A stretch of DNA of 64,000 nucleotides from contig JAUMTX010000002.1 of the NCBI GenBank assembly GCA_030530985.1, positions 52,591 through 116,590 of the forward strand, read 5' to 3'. The notes beneath the pieces were generated by a model, which saw only the letters and a program-made list of their open reading frames with translations, was not told the origin of the DNA and made no database searches. The position numbers and the translations under genes are program-made. Positions 6,106-41,250 of this stretch are shown one piece after another. The stretch is from Corynebacterium sp. GTDB lineage: Bacteria > Actinomycetota > Actinomycetes > Mycobacteriales > Mycobacteriaceae. Numbering within the stretch: position 1 is the first letter of the stretch; every line of letters begins with the position of its first letter.

Positions 6106-7731
6106 GTGAGCGAATCCCCGAGGGAGAACCGCGATATTGCACCAAAGAATATTGCAGTGAAGCCACCTAAACAACGAGGTCATGTGGCCCTGCGTGCAAT
6201 TACGGCTCTTCTGGCGGCCAGTGTTGTGGTCGTATCGGGCGTTGGCTACAGCACCATTGGTAGTGTCACCAATACGGCGCAGAACCTTGACTTGGGTGGC
6301 GGCCAGGTGGTCAAGCAAGGCCAGGCGGCCGATGGTGCCACGGATATTTTGCTGGTGGGTATTGACTCCCGTACTGATGCCCAGGGCAATCCCCTCACCC
6401 AGGCGGAGATTGATATGCTCCGTGCGGGTGATGAGCAGAACCAGAATACAGACACCATTATTTTGATCCGTATTCCTAATGATGGTTCCTCCGCCTCCGC
6501 TATCTCGATCCCCCGCGATACCTATATCCATGATGATAATTATGGAAATATGAAGATCAATGGCGTCTACACCGCCTATGATAATGAGCGCCAGCAGGAA
6601 TTGCTCAACCAAGGTGTGGGCGACCCAACCGAATTGGCACGTGAAGGCCAGCAGGCGGGCCGACAGGCACTGATTGATGCGGTGGCTGATCTCACCGGTA
6701 TTACTGTGGATCACTTTGCCGAGGTTGGCCTCATGGGCTTTGTTCTTATGACTGATGCGGTCGGTGGCGTGCAGGTTTGTTTGAATGAGGCAGTCTATGA
6801 CCCTTATTCGGGCGCGAATTTCCATGCGGGTGTTCAGACCCTCAATGGCGCCGATGCATTGAGTTTCGTGCGTCAGCGTCATGGTCTTCCACGTGGTGAC
6901 CTGGATCGTATTGTGCGTCAGCAAGCTTATATGGCATCCATGGTCAGCACGATTTTGTCCAGCGGTACGCTCTCGAACCCATCGCGCCTCAACGCTTTGG
7001 GCGATGCGGCACGCCGCTCCGTGACCATCGATTCAACCTGGGACATTATGAGCTTTGCCACCCAGCTGCAGAACTTGGCTGGCGGTAATGTTCGATTCAC
7101 AACCATCCCTGTGACCTCCATTGATGGCATTGGTGACTATGGCGAGTCCGTGGTGACTGTGGACAAGGGCCAGGTCCAGGCCTTCTTCCAGCAGCTTTTG
7201 GGCGATAAGGATAAGGCTGGGGCTTCCCAGACTTCGGAGGAAACCACCACTACTGCCCCACCTGAGCCAATTGACCTGGTGGTTAATGTGCTCAATGCTT
7301 CCAATACCAATGGTCTTGCGGCCGGTGTTGGTGCCGCGCTTTCTGAGGATTATGGCTATAAGTTGGGTGAGGTTTCTAATGCCCCTCAGGGCCTCTATGC
7401 CCAGACCCAGATTCTGACTAATGACCCTAATAACCAGCTGGTTAAGGACTTGGCTCGTCGTCTTGGCGGTGTGCCGGTGAATGTGACTGGCTCCTTGGAT
7501 GATGGCGAAGTTGTTTTGGTGACCGCCTCCGATTATTTGGGTCCACGTAAGGACGTCACTGCGACTGCATCTGGTGCTAGCGGTGCTACCTTGGATGATC
7601 CTGATGCGGCCAATGCTGCCTCCGCTAATTTTGCTAGCGGCGAGGTCGTGGGTACCCCTGGTGAGGGTGGCGCCCCAGAGAGCAATGTGTCCATTAATGC
7701 TGGTAGCGATAGCCCACGTTGTGTGAACTAG
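6106..7731 (+). CDS. LytR-CpsA-Psr (LCP) family cell-wall ligase with LytR_C domain
   Basis: LCP proteins transfer lipid-linked glycans to peptidoglycan; in mycobacteria and corynebacteria they attach arabinogalactan. A single membrane helix (about residues 28-48) follows a basic cytosolic tail. The extracellular LCP domain contains DILLVGIDSR, DTIILIRI and SIPRDTYI with the catalytic Asp and Arg, then FVRQRHGLPRGDLDR. A LytR_C domain occupies about 385-475 (VVNVLNASNTNGLA). The GTG at 6106 is preferred because GGAGG lies 5 bases before it; the ATG at 6094 overlaps that site. It sits beside wbbL/rmlD, as Rv3267 does, consistent with ligating the product of that pathway. Confidence 0.92.
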   Translation: MSESPRENRDIAPKNIAVKPPKQRGHVALRAITALLAASVVVVSGVGYSTIGSVTNTAQNLDLGGGQVVKQGQAADGATDILLVGIDSRTDAQGNPLTQAEIDMLRAGDEQNQNTDTIILIRIPNDGSSASAISIPRDTYIHDDNYGNMKINGVYTAYDNERQQELLNQGVGDPTELAREGQQAGRQALIDAVADLTGITVDHFAEVGLMGFVLMTDAVGGVQVCLNEAVYDPYSGANFHAGVQTLNGADALSFVRQRHGLPRGDLDRIVRQQAYMASMVSTILSSGTLSNPSRLNALGDAARRSVTIDSTWDIMSFATQLQNLAGGNVRFTTIPVTSIDGIGDYGESVVTVDKGQVQAFFQQLLGDKDKAGASQTSEETTTTAPPEPIDLVVNVLNASNTNGLAAGVGAALSEDYGYKLGEVSNAPQGLYAQTQILTNDPNNQLVKDLARRLGGVPVNVTGSLDDGEVVLVTASDYLGPRKDVTATASGASGATLDDPDAANAASANFASGEVVGTPGEGGAPESNVSINAGSDSPRCVN

Positions 7732-7775
7732 GCTTTTCGACGCCTCCCCTCATACCTTTTCTGTAGGATTAAACC

Positions 7776-8543
7776 ATGGACATCTTGCGCGACCTTCTCG
7801 CTGCCGATCCATCACGCCCACGTCTGACTTTTTATGATGAGACCTTGGGTGTGCGTATCGAGTTTTCAGCAACCACTCTGGCCAACTGGGCGAATAAAAC
7901 CGCAGGTTGGTTGGTAGAAGAGTGCGAATTCACCGAGCTTTATGAGCACGCCTACCCGACTGCCAATGAGGAGCCTAATGGGCATATTTCCTTGGCTGCC
8001 GGGGTTAATTGGCAAACCGTCGGCCTGGCTTTGGGTGCGCTCACTGTGGGCGCCCGTTTTACTGTGGGTGCGGATTTTCATTCCGACTATATTCTGTGCA
8101 CCTATAAGGACATGGATCAGCTCTATATTGCCACCCTGGAAGCCCATGGTGCGATGAGTGATGATGATACTTTTGACTTCCAGGAATACCCATCCTTGGC
8201 TGTTATTACCGAGGACCCTTTTGGGCGCGGTGTGCGCGAAGTGGGCCTTGAGCTGCCCGATTATGCGATTGACTATGGGCCTGAGGTTCGTGTCAATGAT
8301 GATGCTTATCATAATGCCTGCCCGAGCCTCATTGATGCGCTGAGCAATCTCACCGGCAGCAGGATCGAAAAAGCAGAGCACCACAAGAGGATGCTCTGCC
8401 GGGGTTGGAATGATACTGATTCTCTAGTGGAGAATATTCTCATTCCTTTGGCCCAGGGCCATACGGTGGTTGTGGTTCATGGACCTGCCACCGAGGAACG
8501 ACTGGCCAAGATTGCTGAGGAAGAAAGAATCTCAGCGGATTAG
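7776..8543 (+). CDS. TIGR03089 family protein
   Basis: Conserved actinobacterial protein of unknown function related to the N-terminal part of AMP-forming acyl-CoA synthetases but too short (255 residues) to be one. Visible features are [17 protein letters not shown] near the start, typical of the family, and a long acidic middle. I see no ATP-binding P-loop of the adenylate-forming enzymes. Start choice is firm: AGGA lies 7 bases upstream, and TAGGAT ends 6 bases upstream, so it may also be leaderless. It follows the LCP gene as in Rv3267-Rv3268 and its stop overlaps purE by 4 bp on the other strand. Confidence 0.8.
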
Positions 8544-35740: not shown

Positions 35741-37252
35741 TTAGGCAGCACCTCCTTCAATGGAAGCCCCATTATTTGGCGGCGCAGAATCTTTCATGAT
35801 CTGCGCCGCCATTTCTAGATAACGGCGCATTTGCTCGAAGACTCGAGCTTCCTCTGCAGTACCTGCCCGCTGAGCTGCACCTGCTTTGAGCAGTTCAGCC
35901 GCATGCTTAAGCCCATCATTACTGAGTTCAGCTTGAATCTGGTGCAGAATGCCCAGACGCTGACGCATGCTCACCATCGCTTCCTTACGGCCATCGGGAT
36001 AAACCAAATATGGCTGGTGGGTTTCCAAGTCACGCGTATTATCGCCATAAAGTTGTGGATTAGAGCGGCGAGCGTGCTCACTTGGGCTCAACAGAATACT
36101 GTTGGCAATGCTGGTTGGCCCACCCTGGCTGAATGGCACCATGTGGTGAATCTGGCAGAAGGCCAGTGGAACATTACCATTATGGTCTTCCCCTCCAGCA
36201 GCCATCAGCCCAAGGATCCTGCGCATCCACGGGGCGGCCAAGCGCCCCTCCGCATAATCAATGAGCCGTTTGCCCTCGTTATCCGTAATGGCAATGGCTG
36301 TACGTGCTTCGGCAGCATAGCGCCCATACCGTTGGAGCAGCTTAGTGATTCCAGCAGGATTGAATACTCCGTATCCGCTGGTAAACATGCGCTGGGCCAT
36401 GTCAATACCAAGCCAACTATTGAGCGTTCCTGCCACAGCTAGGTCAAGTCTAATCTTGACCTTATCCCGCATCATATCCATGAATGCCTGGCCCAGTCGA
36501 TGCTTGATGTCATCCTTAGGGCTTCCCACACCTTGGCGGATAAACTTGCCGATCAAGGTATCCATGAACACACCATCAATGCCATCGGTGATGACGTGCA
36601 TGTGCACGCGACCTCGCTTATCCGCATAGTAGGTAAGCTCGGTTGGCGCTGCTCCTTGGAAGTTGCGCTTAACCTCGTACTCCCGGTCACGTAGACGCGA
36701 GTAGTAGCTCACAACCTGGGTGCGGAACTGTGGTTCAATATCGTCCAGGTTGAGATTGTCGACGTCGAGAGGCTTAGCCTTAGGCCGTGGGGGTGGAGTC
36801 GGCTTCTTTTCGGCGACAAGCCGTTCGACAAATGCGCGGCGTTCCATGAAGCGCATGCCGCTGGCAGCACGGCGAATTGCACCGCGAACAATGCGGAGTC
36901 GATCAGAATGTTTCTTCAATCCCTGGGTGCGACACCAAAGAGAATAGATCTCTTTGGAAGTCACGTTATGTTCGAGAGCTATACGGAACACACGGGTGTC
37001 CGCCAAAACCCAACCAACAAAGGCCAAAGGCTTGGCCTCACGGTAGCTGATTCCGCGATTATGCGCAATTGCCTTGTAGAGGGTAGGTTTTGGCATATGC
37101 TTGTACTTGCGGAAGTTAATGACACAGAAGGCCAGATCCGAGCATCGACGGTCGTCAGCGAGTTGATTACACTCTTCAGCATTAGGTAGCTGATTATAAC
37201 TTTGCGCGACTTTGACCATAGAATTACGCAAGTCCGCGCTTTGCGTAAGCAT
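35741..37252 (-). CDS. HNH endonuclease domain protein (DUF222-like architecture)
   Basis: 503 residues. The C-terminal HNH motif reads CQIHHMVPFSQGGPTSIANS followed by LSPSEHAR (about residues 380-410). The N-terminal part is mostly helical and basic with a Pro/Lys linker near 170 (EKKPTPPPRPKAKP), as in the multi-copy HNH proteins of corynebacteria. The ATG at 37252 is chosen because AAGGAG lies 8 bases upstream; an in-frame extension to 37384 has no support. Function in vivo is unknown; it may be nuclease-related to mobile DNA. It converges on icd. Confidence 0.82.
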   Translation of the reverse strand: MLTQSADLRNSMVKVAQSYNQLPNAEECNQLADDRRCSDLAFCVINFRKYKHMPKPTLYKAIAHNRGISYREAKPLAFVGWVLADTRVFRIALEHNVTSKEIYSLWCRTQGLKKHSDRLRIVRGAIRRAASGMRFMERRAFVERLVAEKKPTPPPRPKAKPLDVDNLNLDDIEPQFRTQVVSYYSRLRDREYEVKRNFQGAAPTELTYYADKRGRVHMHVITDGIDGVFMDTLIGKFIRQGVGSPKDDIKHRLGQAFMDMMRDKVKIRLDLAVAGTLNSWLGIDMAQRMFTSGYGVFNPAGITKLLQRYGRYAAEARTAIAITDNEGKRLIDYAEGRLAAPWMRRILGLMAAGGEDHNGNVPLAFCQIHHMVPFSQGGPTSIANSILLSPSEHARRSNPQLYGDNTRDLETHQPYLVYPDGRKEAMVSMRQRLGILHQIQAELSNDGLKHAAELLKAGAAQRAGTAEEARVFEQMRRYLEMAAQIMKDSAPPNNGASIEGGAA

Positions 37253-37517
37253 GTTTTTCACTCCTTCGTGAATGGTAGGTGGATAAGAGGGAGCGACTTT
37301 CGCACCCAATCTGAGGATTAGAACAAATAATACACCCGTTCGAAGCCTTGTAGAAGGCTTGCACGAACTTGCATAGCCGTGCAAAAATTTCAGATTTCCT
37401 ACCTGCGCGAATCTGAGCGAATGTGACTATAAACACAGTGAAATTAGCTCAGTAGCAATCAAGACCCAGCAATTAATTGCAGAAGCGTGCCATACGGGCA
37501 TTTATGCACCTAAACGG

Positions 37518-37523
37518 TACAAT
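37518..37523 (+). promoter_or_regulatory. Extended -10 TACAAT of a leaderless gene
   Basis: TACAAT ends 6 bases before the GTG at 37530 with no ribosome binding site in between, so transcription probably starts at the GTG itself. Confidence 0.5.
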
Positions 37524-37529
37524 AACCCT

Positions 37530-38255
37530 GTGCAGACCCCTAAGTTTTCGAAAAATAGCCGAGTTCTCCGATTGCTCACCGCATGCGCCTTCGGTGGCGC
37601 CGCACTGTGCTCACAGGCATATACCGTGACCCCAAATATCACGACAATGACGTGTATTTATGACCCTAACCAGGCGGATTCGGCTGTCGCGAACTTCTGG
37701 ACAACTCTCCAAAGTGATGCGCGCGCCCAGCGACTGGATGAACTTGATGCGGTCGATCCAGGGCTTAAGGATGCCATCTTGGCCTACCAAAATGACCCCA
37801 CCAGCCAGATTGCAGGCGACTTGCAGACCCGCATTGAAGCAGCTGGTGGCACCGAAGGCTTGGCCGAGCTCATCGAGGCCGAGGATCCGAACCTGGTCGA
37901 TCAGGCCGGCACTGCCCTGAACCCGAACCTCCAGACCGCATATACGGAGGACCAGGCAAAGGCGGCAGCTGCAGCGATTAGTGATAATCCCGCCGCAGCA
38001 ATTGAGGGTGCACTTGCCGACGGCACCCGCCTAGGCGATATCCAAACGGAGCTGTTCAAACAGCGCGAAGCGCAGTATAACCAGACACAGTTCGAATTGC
38101 GCAAGAGCCTTCAAGATTGTGTAAAGGCACTTGAAAAGGCAAAGCCGATGCCCCTTTGGCAACGCGTAGGAATTGTAATTATCGTGGGCCTCATCGTGAT
38201 TGTGGGCACCCGCGCTGTCTACAATAACCGTAAGCCAGTACGCCACGGCAAGTAA
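37530..38255 (+). CDS. Exported, membrane-anchored protein of unknown function
   Basis: 241 residues. An N-terminal signal-like segment (about 12-30, LLTACAFGGAALCSQAY) is followed by an Ala/Gln/Asp-rich helical ectodomain (30-200) and a C-terminal membrane helix (about 208-230, VGIVIIVGLIVIVGTRAVY) with a short basic tail. Two cysteines (MTCIYD and QDCVKA) bracket the ectodomain and may pair. I do not recognise the family. It is alone, followed by a strong terminator and then the DnaA-box region. Confidence 0.75.
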   Translation: MQTPKFSKNSRVLRLLTACAFGGAALCSQAYTVTPNITTMTCIYDPNQADSAVANFWTTLQSDARAQRLDELDAVDPGLKDAILAYQNDPTSQIAGDLQTRIEAAGGTEGLAELIEAEDPNLVDQAGTALNPNLQTAYTEDQAKAAAAAISDNPAAAIEGALADGTRLGDIQTELFKQREAQYNQTQFELRKSLQDCVKALEKAKPMPLWQRVGIVIIVGLIVIVGTRAVYNNRKPVRHGK

Positions 38256-38276
38256 TCTGCACACTTCAACAGAATT

Positions 38277-38321
38277 CCCTATTGCGCCATCTGACCAGGC
38301 GCAATGGGGATTTTCTTTTAT
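38277..38321 (+). terminator. Rho-independent terminator after the 37.5-kb gene
   Basis: A 12-bp stem with one wobble pair (38277-38288 with 38298-38309) is followed by ATTTTCTTTTATT. Confidence 0.85.
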
Positions 38322-39203
38322 TCACAGTGAGGCGAATTAGCGCCATTAACATCTATGCTAACCACTCTTACTGGGCTGATAGTTTCACATTATCCACAGA
38401 GTTATCCACAGGCTGTGAATAACAAGGTGGATATTTCACACCGGGACTGCTGACCAGCACAAACACAGCGGTTACTGGGCTTATAACTCCCTCCTATACG
38501 GATAGATTCCCGATCTCACCTTCAAATTCCACAAAACAAACGCAATGACCTCGATAATTACAAAATATATATTCACACGGTTATACACAGCTTGTGAATT
38601 TTACTGGGGATATAAGTTTTAGCTGGTAGTGCCACAGGCTAAACCATGTCATTCACAATTTTTCGATGGACCGAAGATTACAAGCCACCCTACCACTCCC
38701 CTACCCCAACTCCACAGAGCACAATTTTTGTAATTAACTCCCCTTCACTACGTGAAAACACTGCCGACCAGGAGGTTTTTGCATGAGTTATCCACAGGGC
38801 AAAACTACGACTGTGAAATACTTTTTATTGGGGTAAATGCACTATTTATGCAGGTAGTGGAGTTTTACCAGGTCACCATACCCAAGGCTCAAATCGACTT
38901 ATCCACAGAATTTCACATCCCCGCAGCCCATACTGTTTGCACAAATGCACAAAAGCATCAAAATAATTACAAAAATTTTACAGGCCCCCGAAAATCACAC
39001 TCTTATTCCACAGCGACCAGGAGTTTATCCACAGGCACCCCACCCCACCTGGGGATATAGCGAAATCCCCAGGTCAGTTTACAAACATGCAGGTAAGACC
39101 GCTTTTTCTTCTGCTCTGCACATTCAGCCCCGCACGCATGCAAGCCGTTTCTCCTGCGTTTATCCACAAGTTTATCCACAGGCCACAAGTTAATTACAAA
39201 AAA
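38318..39203. other. Dense DnaA-box cluster (oriC-like or DnaA-titrating region)
   Basis: Ten strict DnaA boxes (TTATNCACA) occur at 38318, 38390, 38402, 38581, 38788, 38899, 39025, 39160 and 39172 on the plus strand and 38414-38422 on the minus strand; seven are TTATCCACA exactly. Boxes at 38390, 38402 and 38414 and the pair 39160/39172 are spaced 12 bp. Near matches lie at 38568 and 38648. AT-rich TAATTACAAAAA elements are interspersed. No protein-coding frame here is credible. Such a layout is typical of bacterial replication origins, but no dnaA, dnaN or rpmH is nearby, so a titration or secondary site is also possible. Confidence 0.8.
38555..39203. repeat. Dispersed AT-rich repeat TAATTACAAAAA
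   Basis: Copies are at 38555 (TAATTACAAAA), 38725-38736 (reverse orientation, full 12-mer), 38964-38975 and 39191-39202. They alternate with DnaA boxes; some run into AAAATTTT tracts. They resemble DNA-unwinding-element repeats, an inference. Confidence 0.65.
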
Positions 39204-39376
39204 TTTTCCACATCGCCACTTCTCCGTCAGTGGTTAAAACATGTAATTATGCGGCAATTTTTTCAGACCAAGGTGTCTACATTGGGCCATCGAGCCTAAA
39301 TCTCGAAAAATTTTTTATCCGCTTTAACCTGCACGTATGGAGATAAATTTCTAAAAACTAAGCAGTCCACTTGCAA

Positions 39377-39392
39377 TAGACCAAGTGGTTCA
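39377..39392. promoter_or_regulatory. McbR-like operator upstream of metY
   Basis: TAGACCAAGTGGTTCA matches the C. glutamicum McbR site TAGAC-N6-GTCTA fully in the left half and partly in the right. It lies 56 bp before the metY start. The same motif precedes metX and both metQ genes. Confidence 0.65.
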
Positions 39393-39447
39393 TTATGCTT
39401 GTGTTCATCGAACTTCACCAATAAAAACTCTTGAAAGGATCAAGACA

Positions 39448-40761
39448 ATGCCAAAGTATGACAACTCCAATGCTTCCGAGTGGAACTTTGAAACCCGCTC
39501 CATTCACGCAGGCCAGCCTGTGGATAGCGCAACCAGCTCCCGCAACCTGCCAATTTATCTGACCTCTTCCTACGTCTTTGATAGCGCCGAGCACGCACGC
39601 CAGCGCTTCGCACTGGAGGATGCAGGCCCTGTTTATTCCCGTCTCACCAACCCAACCGTGGCAGCTGTTGAAGACCGTCTCGCATCTCTCGAGGGTGGCG
39701 TGCACGCCGTGCTTTTCGGCTCCGGCCAGGCCGCTGAGACCGCAGCCATTCTTAATATTGCTCGTGCTGGTTCCCACATTGTGGCTAGCCCACGCCTTTA
39801 TGGTGGCACCGAGACTCTGCTCCAGGTGACTTTGCCTCGCCTGGGCATTGAGACCACCTTCGTTGAGAATCCAGACGATCCTGAGTCTTGGCAGGCAGCG
39901 GTCAAGGATAATACCGTCGCGTTTTATGCTGAGACTTTTGCTAATCCACAGGCTGACGTGCTCGATATTCCGGCCGTGTCTGAGGTAGCTCATCGCAACC
40001 AGGTTCCACTGATTGTGGATAACACCATTGCCACTGCTGCCCTGGTCCGCCCACTTGAGCTTGGCGCGGATGTCGTAGTTGCCTCTACTACCAAGTTCTA
40101 TACCGGCAATGGCTCTGGCCTTGGTGGCGTGCTTGTCGACGGCGGCACCTTCGACTGGTCCGTTGAGCGCAATGGCGAACCTGTCTTCCCAGATTTCGTC
40201 AACCCTGACCCTGCTTATCATGGTCTCAAGTATGTTGACCTGGGTGCCCCAGCCTTTGGTTTGAAGGCTCGTGTGGGCCTGCTGCGCGATACCGGCGCTG
40301 CTCCTAGCCCATTCAATGCGTGGGTGCTTGCACAGGGCCTGGATACCCTTTCCCTTCGCGTTGAGCGCCATAATGAGAATGCCAAGCGTGTGGCTGAGTT
40401 CCTTGATGCTCATCCTAAGGTCACCAAGGTCAACTATGCTGGTCTACCGTCCTCCCCTTGGTATGCAACCAAGGAGAAGCTGGGCCTCAAGTACACCGGC
40501 AGCGTGATTTCCTTCGATATCAAGGGTGGCCGCGAGGAAGCCTGGGCCTTTATCGACGCCCTCAAGCTCCACTCCAACCTGGCCAATATTGGCGACGTAC
40601 GCTCCCTGGTTGTACACCCTGCCACCACCACTCACTCCCAGTCCGATGAGGCTGGCCTGACTCGCGCAGGTATCAATGAGGCCACTGTCCGACTCTCTGT
40701 CGGCATTGAGAATATCGACGATATCCTGGCTGATTTGGAGCGTGGTTTTAACGCAGTATAG
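39448..40761 (+). CDS. metY: O-acetylhomoserine sulfhydrylase MetY
   Basis: PLP enzyme making homocysteine from O-acetylhomoserine and sulfide, the direct sulfhydrylation route to methionine. PLP lysine K216 lies in TTKFYTGNG; YSRLTNPT and GSGQAAE bind the cofactor. The ATG at 39448 gives 437 residues, the corynebacterial length, and follows AAAGGA by 8 bases; an in-frame start at 39385 would run over the operator. MetX, which makes its substrate, is encoded 8.4 kb downstream rather than adjacent. Confidence 0.96.
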   Translation: MPKYDNSNASEWNFETRSIHAGQPVDSATSSRNLPIYLTSSYVFDSAEHARQRFALEDAGPVYSRLTNPTVAAVEDRLASLEGGVHAVLFGSGQAAETAAILNIARAGSHIVASPRLYGGTETLLQVTLPRLGIETTFVENPDDPESWQAAVKDNTVAFYAETFANPQADVLDIPAVSEVAHRNQVPLIVDNTIATAALVRPLELGADVVVASTTKFYTGNGSGLGGVLVDGGTFDWSVERNGEPVFPDFVNPDPAYHGLKYVDLGAPAFGLKARVGLLRDTGAAPSPFNAWVLAQGLDTLSLRVERHNENAKRVAEFLDAHPKVTKVNYAGLPSSPWYATKEKLGLKYTGSVISFDIKGGREEAWAFIDALKLHSNLANIGDVRSLVVHPATTTHSQSDEAGLTRAGINEATVRLSVGIENIDDILADLERGFNAV

Positions 40762-40813
40762 TTGACTCTCCTAAGCCGTTAAGGCACCCTCCTCATAAAT
40801 AGTTTTCTTCCAC

Positions 40814-40846
40814 AGCGATAGGCCCTTCGGGGCCTATCGCTTTTTA
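40814..40846 (+). terminator. Rho-independent terminator of metY
   Basis: A perfect 12-bp stem (40814-40825 with 40830-40841) with TTCG loop is followed by TTTTAT. Confidence 0.92.
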
Positions 40847-40883
40847 TATGGCCTGGTCAACCGGGAGGCGCAGCAGATCGGCC

Positions 40884-40922
40884 CATAAAAAAACTCGGAG
40901 CCACAGTAGTGACTCCGAGTTC
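40884..40922 (-). terminator. Rho-independent terminator of the small secreted gene
   Basis: A 9-bp stem (40892-40900 with 40913-40921) is followed in the minus direction by a run of seven T. Confidence 0.85.
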
Positions 40923-40932
40923 TTAAGCCCTT

Positions 40933-41250
40933 TTAGCCAAAGAGGCTAGCAATCCAGCGGAATGGTGCGAACAGCACATTCAAAACCTTGGTGAACCAAG
41001 ATACCTGGGTTGTGGTCTGGGCAGGGGTTTCTGCTTGGGATTCAGTCTCACAGCCTTCTGCGGTTGGATCAATCTCGCAAGAAGAATATGGATGAATGAC
41101 CTCGGAAATTACGAGGTCGCCATCTTCGTAGTACTCAAAAGTTGGGTCATCAGCATGTGCCATAGCACCAGAACCAACTCCTGCACCAAGAAGGACGCCC
41201 AGGCTAAGACCACCGGCAACGGCGATGCGTCGTGCAGTAGCCAACACCAT
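40933..41250 (-). CDS. Small secreted protein of unknown function
   Basis: 105 residues. A signal peptide (about 1-33, ending GAMAHA) is followed by an acidic segment with two cysteines (SSCEIDPTAEGCE) and a Thr/Gln-rich linker. The C-terminal 20 residues (VSWFTKVLNVLFAPFRWIASLFG) form a hydrophobic, aromatic and amphipathic segment that could insert in or lie on a membrane. The gene has its own terminator. I do not recognise it. Upstream, 41251-41527 shows no gene. Confidence 0.72.
   Translation of the reverse strand: MVLATARRIAVAGGLSLGVLLGAGVGSGAMAHADDPTFEYYEDGDLVISEVIHPYSSCEIDPTAEGCETESQAETPAQTTTQVSWFTKVLNVLFAPFRWIASLFG

What the first reader, a model, noticed from the sequence alone, without database searches (positions are those of the whole stretch)
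38318..39180. Ten strict DnaA boxes in 0.86 kb, away from any visible dnaA
Boxes TTATNCACA occur ten times (nine plus, one minus), seven of them TTATCCACA. About 0.03 would be expected by chance in this length at equal base composition. Three consecutive boxes (38390, 38402, 38414) and a pair (39160, 39172) have 12-bp spacing, as in functional DnaA arrays. The known actinobacterial origin lies beside dnaA-dnaN, and the conserved gene order around here is not that region. The locus may be a relocated or second origin, or a DnaA-titrating site comparable in role to E. coli datA. I know of no described element of this kind at this place in Corynebacterium.
Basis: partly seen in the sequence, partly recalled or inferred. 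Interest (0 to 1): 0.88.

Follow-up and report, generated by a model that had tools for sequence, protein, structure and literature searches.

The report
Extra DnaA-binding cluster upstream of metY
In two closely related Corynebacterium genomes a 1-kb stretch rich in likely binding sites for the replication initiator DnaA sits in front of a methionine gene, away from the normal replication origin; it may soak up DnaA and help time DNA replication, like a similar cluster seen near the origin in most of the Corynebacterium genomes sampled for it.

Summary
In detail: ten TTATNCACA boxes at 38318-39180; 0.07 expected at this genome's own box density. It is not the ordinary oriC: the one dnaA found lies on another contig in the usual gyrB-recF-dnaN-[gap]-dnaA-rpmH-rnpA order. 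The boxes fill a 1.19-kb gap between a strong hairpin terminator and metY. In 13 other loci with the same upstream gene the gap is 91-517 bp without boxes; of the relatives examined only the sister genome G233 has a large box-rich gap. This genome has a second, denser cluster beside rhomboid-ppiA; 33 of 40 chosen Corynebacterium genomes have boxes there. Both clusters and oriC carry an AATTACA/TGTAATT motif; its full palindrome lay in the dnaA-dnaN gap in 23 of 30 fetched loci, though 68 of 101 genomes lack the exact form. Best explanation: a lineage-specific DnaA-titration/timing site working like datA or the Streptomyces and Bacillus clusters. A second origin is unlikely, not excluded. Function is inferred; no binding or replication data exist here.

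The parts
38273..38318 (+). Likely intrinsic terminator of the upstream gene: 13-bp stem, 9-nt loop, T-rich tail; its tail runs into the first box
   Evidence: fold -26.3 kcal/mol, z -7.9; inverted repeat. The consensus scan did not list it (it allows loops of 3-8) and found only chance numbers of other terminator- and promoter-like sites
38318..39180 (.). Cluster of ten TTATNCACA DnaA boxes
38390..38423 (+). Composite core: two direct boxes 12 bp apart followed by an inverted box (TTATCCACAGAGTTATCCACAGGCTGTGAATAAC); similar cores in the ppiA-rhomboid clusters of this and other genomes
   Evidence: spacings
39160..39212 (+). Two direct boxes 12 bp apart, then AATTACAA (39192) and a near-box TTTTCCACA (39204)
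38556..38563 (+). Co-motif half-site AATTACAA
38728..38735 (-). Co-motif half-site AATTACAA (minus strand)
38965..38972 (+). Co-motif half-site AATTACAA
39192..39199 (+). Co-motif half-site AATTACAA
39242..39248 (-). Co-motif half-site AATTACA (TGTAATT on +)
39264..39279 (+). McbR-like operator CAGAC-N6-GTCTA, one mismatch to the consensus TAGAC-N6-GTCTA, which is recalled and not confirmed here (one search found no paper); exact in G233
   Evidence: the window has 4 such sites with at most one mismatch
39448..40761 (+). metY, O-acetylhomoserine sulfhydrylase (Cys/Met metabolism PLP enzyme)
37530..38255 (+). Upstream gene (241 aa, no Pfam match); homologue before metY in G233 (74-75% identical) and, at 32-43% identity and with a short gap, in 13 other loci

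Best explanation
The gap is a non-coding DnaA-binding site that acts away from the origin. DnaA bound to the ten boxes, cooperatively on the 12-bp-spaced direct and inverted groups, is kept from oriC (or its nucleotide state is changed there), so that each duplication of the site as the fork passes lowers free DnaA and delays re-initiation. It is a lineage-specific extra site beside a cluster of similar make-up that most sampled Corynebacterium keep near rhomboid-ppiA. A second factor that recognises AATTACA/TGTAATT half-sites probably binds with DnaA at oriC and at both clusters. Shown: anatomy, statistics, spread among the genomes examined, shared motifs. Inferred: DnaA binding, titration, the co-factor, any effect on timing.
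For: Box number far above chance. Ordinary oriC elsewhere. The boxes sit between a strong hairpin with T tail and the metY control region; transcription through E. coli datA/DARS harms their function (PMC5010248, passages). The metY gap is 91-517 bp in 13 loci with the same upstream gene but about 1.2 kb in the window and G233; in G233 the gap is diverged yet holds 4 strict and 5 CTATNCACA boxes, as expected if box content rather than exact sequence is kept. The 34-bp core has 3 mismatches in this genome's ppiA cluster and 16 in its oriC. ATTACAA exceeds its shuffled expectation in oriC, ppiA and metY sites of this genome and in the two clusters of G233. Position by analogy: in G045 and G082 metY lies about 0.2 of the chromosome from dnaA; E. 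coli datA and DARS2 lie at 0.10 and 0.21 (PMC5010248, passages). S. coelicolor and B. subtilis have datA-like clusters (PMC4585315 and PMC10950094, passages).
Against: No DnaA binding, deletion or replication data. At metY it was seen in one relative only. The known S. coelicolor and B. subtilis clusters are described as close to oriC; this one probably is not. The co-motif's full palindrome is absent here, the 8-bp spacing from co-motif to box seen in other genomes is not present here, and the longer form TAATTACAA was in only 3 of 33 genus clusters. No extended similarity between the metY gap and the ppiA cluster. The genome is a 58-contig draft, so the distance to oriC is inferred from relatives.
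Confidence: 0.65

Rival explanations
1. DnaA acts here as a transcription factor for metY or the upstream gene, coupling methionine synthesis to the cell cycle.
For: The cluster lies upstream of metY, mostly in the same orientation, and DnaA is a transcription factor in other bacteria (PMC8203912, start of abstract in the listing).
Against: Boxes lie 268-1130 bp before the metY start, upstream of the McbR-like sites; metY in the other Corynebacterium examined has 0 or 1 box there; a terminator-like hairpin follows the upstream gene. Ten boxes seem more than a promoter needs (inference).
Confidence: 0.15
2. A DARS-like site that recharges DnaA (ADP to ATP), promoting rather than delaying initiation.
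For: Inverted and direct box groups and a likely position near 0.2 of the chromosome, as for DARS2.
Against: DARS needs only a few specifically arranged boxes (recalled); ten boxes fit binding capacity better. Anatomy alone cannot separate the two.
Confidence: 0.1
3. A second or relocated replication origin.
For: Many boxes, 12-bp spacing, local GC minimum 0.28 in 60 bp (oriC 0.30), co-motif shared with oriC.
Against: A dnaA-dnaN gap with boxes is present; no skew sign change across the cluster (-0.016 in 58 kb left, -0.001 in 25 kb right; third-position skew is negative on both sides and lower in plus-strand than in minus-strand genes on both sides, few genes); ppiA clusters of similar make-up coexist with dnaA-dnaN oriCs in other genomes; the palindrome found in many oriCs is absent at metY, though also from this genome's own oriC.
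Confidence: 0.05
4. A neutral or selfish insertion with boxes that do nothing.
For: Seen in two genomes only; sequence turns over fast.
Against: Boxes and co-motif remain numerous in both genomes although most of the gap is hardly alignable.
Confidence: 0.05

Closest known systems
Escherichia coli datA
   Same: Non-coding DnaA-box cluster away from oriC; likely position 0.1-0.2 of the chromosome from it
   Different: No IHF site identified (not searched for); AATTACA half-sites instead; mostly direct boxes; a terminator-like hairpin stands before it, whereas datA is reached by read-through tRNA transcription (PMC10950094, title and passages); seen in one lineage only at this place
Streptomyces coelicolor DnaA-box clusters (Smulczyk-Krawczyszyn 2006; the strongest is recalled as D78)
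   Same: Actinobacterial DnaA-box cluster outside oriC, cited as repressing untimely initiation
   Different: Described as close to oriC; original paper not held, so motifs could not be compared
Bacillus subtilis oriC-proximal DnaA-box clusters (Okumura 2012)
   Same: Box clusters outside oriC, cited as repressing untimely initiation
   Different: oriC-proximal; original paper not held
Corynebacterium oriC (dnaA-dnaN gap)
   Same: DnaA boxes and AATTACA/TGTAATT motif
   Different: Many relatives' oriCs have the full 18-bp palindrome near boxes; metY has half-sites and the core resembling the ppiA cluster

Membership tests
datA-type DnaA-titration/inactivation site | Cluster of DnaA boxes in non-coding DNA away from oriC | tested here: met
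datA-type DnaA-titration/inactivation site | Binding site for an architectural partner (IHF in E. coli) | tested here: inconclusive
   A repeated AATTACA motif is present and shared with oriC, but no protein is known for it
datA-type DnaA-titration/inactivation site | Binds DnaA and promotes ATP hydrolysis or titration | not testable with these tools
   needs EMSA/ChIP and biochemistry
datA-type DnaA-titration/inactivation site | Conserved position in the species group | tested here: not met
   At metY only in the window and G233 among the genomes examined; the rhomboid-ppiA cluster is the widespread one (33 of 40). So this copy is said to work like datA, not to be it
oriC-proximal clusters of Streptomyces/Bacillus | Located near oriC | tested here: inconclusive
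   Draft genome; in G082 and G045 metY is about 0.46 and 0.54 Mb from dnaA, which would not be near
Chromosomal origin oriC | Lies beside dnaA/dnaN | tested here: not met
Chromosomal origin oriC | GC-skew change at the site | tested here: not met
   83 kb of one contig only
Chromosomal origin oriC | AATTACA-N4-TGTAATT palindrome near boxes, as in many Corynebacterium oriCs | tested here: not met
   not a strict marker, since this genome's own oriC and 68 of 101 genomes lack the exact form
DARS | ADP-to-ATP exchange on DnaA | not testable with these tools
   biochemistry needed

The most novel reading that the evidence does not exclude
Corynebacterium has a replication-control module of its own, made of DnaA boxes plus AATTACA-N4-TGTAATT sites for an unidentified partner protein. 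It is present at oriC and at an oriC-proximal rhomboid-ppiA cluster in much of the genus, and in this lineage a further copy was installed at metY, about a fifth of the chromosome away, adding a later-replicating DnaA sink.
Probability: 0.4. Interest if true: 0.8.

Novelty: new member of a known kind. Interest (0 to 1): 0.6.

Why it matters
I found no description of how initiation is restrained in Corynebacterium (searches listed under Tried and rejected). A widespread DnaA-box cluster with an oriC-shared co-motif, and a natural extra copy in one lineage, give a concrete, deletable target and a DNA bait for finding a partner protein. The window copy suggests that such sites can be gained far from oriC within a genus.

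Tried and rejected
Relocated oriC: rejected as main reading because a normal dnaN-dnaA gap exists. Genus-wide conservation of the cluster at metY: not found in the part examined. Direct duplication of the ppiA cluster: blastn shows only short box-containing matches, but the ppiA clusters of the two sister genomes also match each other only in short pieces, so this neither shows nor refutes duplication. RNA element: no Rfam match up to E 0.5 in 37000-41000. GlxR-type TGTGA-N6-TCACA sites (motif recalled): none in the five regions. Protein for the co-motif: 16 other stretches of this genome with TAATTACAA were looked at by eye only (ORF starts, no family search) and gave no obvious regulator gene; a literature search for the letters found unrelated papers and the E. 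coli RelB operator, whose right half is TTGTAATTACAA (PMC2812701, passages), a lead or a coincidence. ppiA clusters outside Corynebacterium: in 27 newly fetched loci of other genera 0-2 boxes of the wider form TTRTNCACA, but only 1.5 kb each side was seen and genus clusters begin about 1 kb away, so some could be missed. The control for the 34-bp core is weak: random pieces hold few boxes (14-18 mismatches in 27 pieces); in 29 other box-pair loci it scored 6-15, the three lowest being a ppiA locus (L057), a sequence end beside dnaA (L045) and an unidentified one (L065).

Prior description: full-text searches listed no paper whose title or shown abstract concerns a Corynebacterium DnaA-box cluster outside oriC. 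The Corynebacterium genome papers mention DnaA boxes about once each and were not opened; subscription papers are not held. This is not proof of absence.

Full report
OBSERVATION. Ten TTATNCACA boxes lie at 38318-39180 as described. The window has 13 in all against 1.5 in dinucleotide shuffles. The genome (G000, 58 contigs, 2.107 Mb, 91% complete) has 160 such boxes against 27 for the reversed pattern, 100 of them TTATCCACA. At that density the segment should hold 0.066 boxes. Counted over all 160 places, only two 1-kb stretches have more than 3: this one (10) and C40:55514-56146 (11).

WHERE oriC IS. One DnaA match was found in the genome, on contig C17, in the order gyrB, a small gene, recF, dnaN, gap, dnaA, rpmH, rnpA, yidC (gene names by inspection of translations, recalled). 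The dnaN-dnaA gap has 3 strict boxes and further near-boxes. So dnaA does not lie beside the window cluster, and an ordinary oriC exists.

ANATOMY AT metY. The gene upstream (241 aa, no Pfam match) ends at 38255. A strong hairpin with a T-rich tail follows at 38273-38318 (fold -26.3 kcal/mol, z -7.9). Boxes run from 38318 to 39180, with two groups at 12-bp spacing and an 81% inverted repeat at 38391-38433. McbR-like sites (consensus recalled; one search found no paper) stand at 39264 and 39377 with 1 and 2 mismatches; metY starts at 39448. The only longer stretch that matches G233 well is 39371-39426, beside metY (56 bp, 95%). GC of the gap is 0.43; the 2-kb profile elsewhere in the window runs mostly 0.51-0.58. 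Promoter- and terminator-like consensus sites in the gap are at chance level.

COMPARISON AT metY. metY was found in 115 of 121 genus genomes and, at a stricter cut, in 227 of 242. Upstream sequence was examined for part of these: 29 nearest other genomes (about 1.5 kb each; 2 have one box), 20 further genomes (4 kb each; 2 have one box), 17 further near relatives plus G233 (about 1.5 kb each; the 17 have none), and 80 named loci, 14 of them Corynebacterium and some of these certainly or probably the same genomes (up to 3 kb; one has one box; one, L183, has no upstream sequence). Only G233, the closest relative (MetY 94% identical), has several: 4 strict boxes and 5 of the form CTATNCACA. Thirteen loci keep a homologue of the upstream gene (32-43% identical) with gaps of 91-517 bp, against 1,192 bp in the window and about 1,235 bp in G233. 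The gap was therefore enlarged by roughly 0.7-1.1 kb in the ancestor of these two, or reduced elsewhere; insertion is the simpler reading.

A SECOND CLUSTER. The genome's other dense cluster lies at C40:55514-56146, next to the rhomboid and ppiA genes (gene names by inspection). I fetched 4 kb downstream of the ppiA match in 40 Corynebacterium genomes, chosen from the listed matches (mostly single-contig assemblies, not a random draw): 33 have at least 2 boxes, 32 have 3 or more in 1 kb, 24 have 4 or more, and 7 have none; 151 boxes against 3 of the reversed pattern in 166 kb. In six genomes where both were seen (G019, G043, G044, G045, G083, G089) it lies about 19-36 kb from dnaA. In 27 loci of other genera no such cluster was seen within 1.5 kb of ppiA.

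SHARED PARTS. A blastn search with the metY gap found matches (E up to 0.001) in 61 of 242 genomes, the best two candidates per genome being scored; nearly all are short matches to the two-box core, and several were checked to lie at the ppiA cluster. The 34-bp core, idealised at one base, has 3 mismatches in this genome's ppiA cluster and in that of G233, 6 in the metY gap of G233, 4-11 in the 33 genus clusters, 16 in this genome's oriC, and 14-18 in 27 random 1-kb pieces of the window; in 29 other box-pair loci 6-15. Because the core was taken from the window, the window's own score means nothing. Box spacings of 12-13 bp (same direction) and 10, 12 or 24 bp (opposite) are the commonest short ones in the clusters; shared descent contributes.

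THE CO-MOTIF. ATTACAA (both strands counted, so a palindromic site counts twice) occurs 5 times in the metY gap, 4 in oriC, 8 in the ppiA cluster, and 3 and 8 in the two clusters of G233, with 0.15-0.34 expected; of 300 shuffles none reached these numbers except one for the G233 metY gap. TAATTACAA has 37 matches at 32 sites in the genome: 4 sites in the metY gap, 6 at the ppiA cluster (9 matches) and 2 in oriC; one more lies in the end of the gene before the metY gap. In the genus clusters AATTACAA is present in 22 of 33, 30 copies in 24.7 kb against 1 in 112 kb of flank; the longer TAATTACAA is in only 3 of 33. Of 58 copies, 24 have a box of the loose form YTWTNCACA within 40 bp downstream, and in 19 of these the gap is exactly 8 bp; these come largely from one homologous place, and the window's own copies do not show it. 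Read with its neighbours the motif is a palindrome, AATTACA-N4-TGTAATT. In 101 genomes searched the exact palindrome has matches in 33, none for the reversed pattern; of 30 fetched loci, one per genome, 23 lie between dnaA and dnaN. So it is an oriC-associated motif in part of the genus. In this genome the exact form is at C4 and at the ppiA cluster, not in oriC, and the metY gap carries half-sites only. I found no protein for it.

INTERPRETATION. The metY gap combines the parts of the ppiA cluster and sits behind a terminator. A DnaA sink is the most economical function, by comparison with datA (PMC5010248, passages) and with clusters in S. coelicolor and B. subtilis that restrain untimely initiation (PMC4585315 and PMC10950094, passages; the original papers are not held). 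Distance from oriC is inferred: 0.54 Mb of 2.69 Mb in G045 and about 0.46 Mb of about 2.4 Mb in G082, whose contig has the length of one of C. lowii NML 130206. For C. glutamicum I read only passages of one marker-frequency paper (PMC5461407); they speak of one oriC. All functional steps are inference.

CHANGES ON CHECKING.

Noticed in passing
G000:C40:55514-56146 (L100 9515-10147) and L227-L266: DnaA-box cluster beside rhomboid-ppiA, with boxes in 33 of 40 Corynebacterium genomes examined; no description found in the searches listed
   Followed up: partly
dnaA-dnaN gaps, in L332-L360: 18-bp palindrome AATTACA-N4-TGTAATT in the dnaA-dnaN gap in 23 of 30 fetched loci; binding protein unknown
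   Followed up: partly
L227-L266, ppiA clusters: TGTTCGAA (LexA-like half, recalled) occurs 22 times in 16 of 33 clusters and not in the rest of those fetched stretches
   Followed up: partly
L100 6555-9104 (G000:C40): Imperfect long repeats (about 323 bp, TRF at 7263-7931) and repeated ORF-like pieces between crgA and the ppiA cluster
   Followed up: partly
L289 1895 and 2197 (G000:C34): Two nearly identical stretches about 300 bp apart, each with TAATTACAA; possible small repeat element
   Followed up: no
L112 6278-7127 (G164): The dnaA-dnaN gap of this genome has 18 strict boxes here, far more than the 3 of the window's genome: oriC box number varies widely in the genus
   Followed up: no
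window 38368, 38472, 38601, 39049: Short repeats of the TTACTGGG and CTGGGGATATA type inside the cluster, not found in the four other regions compared
   Followed up: partly
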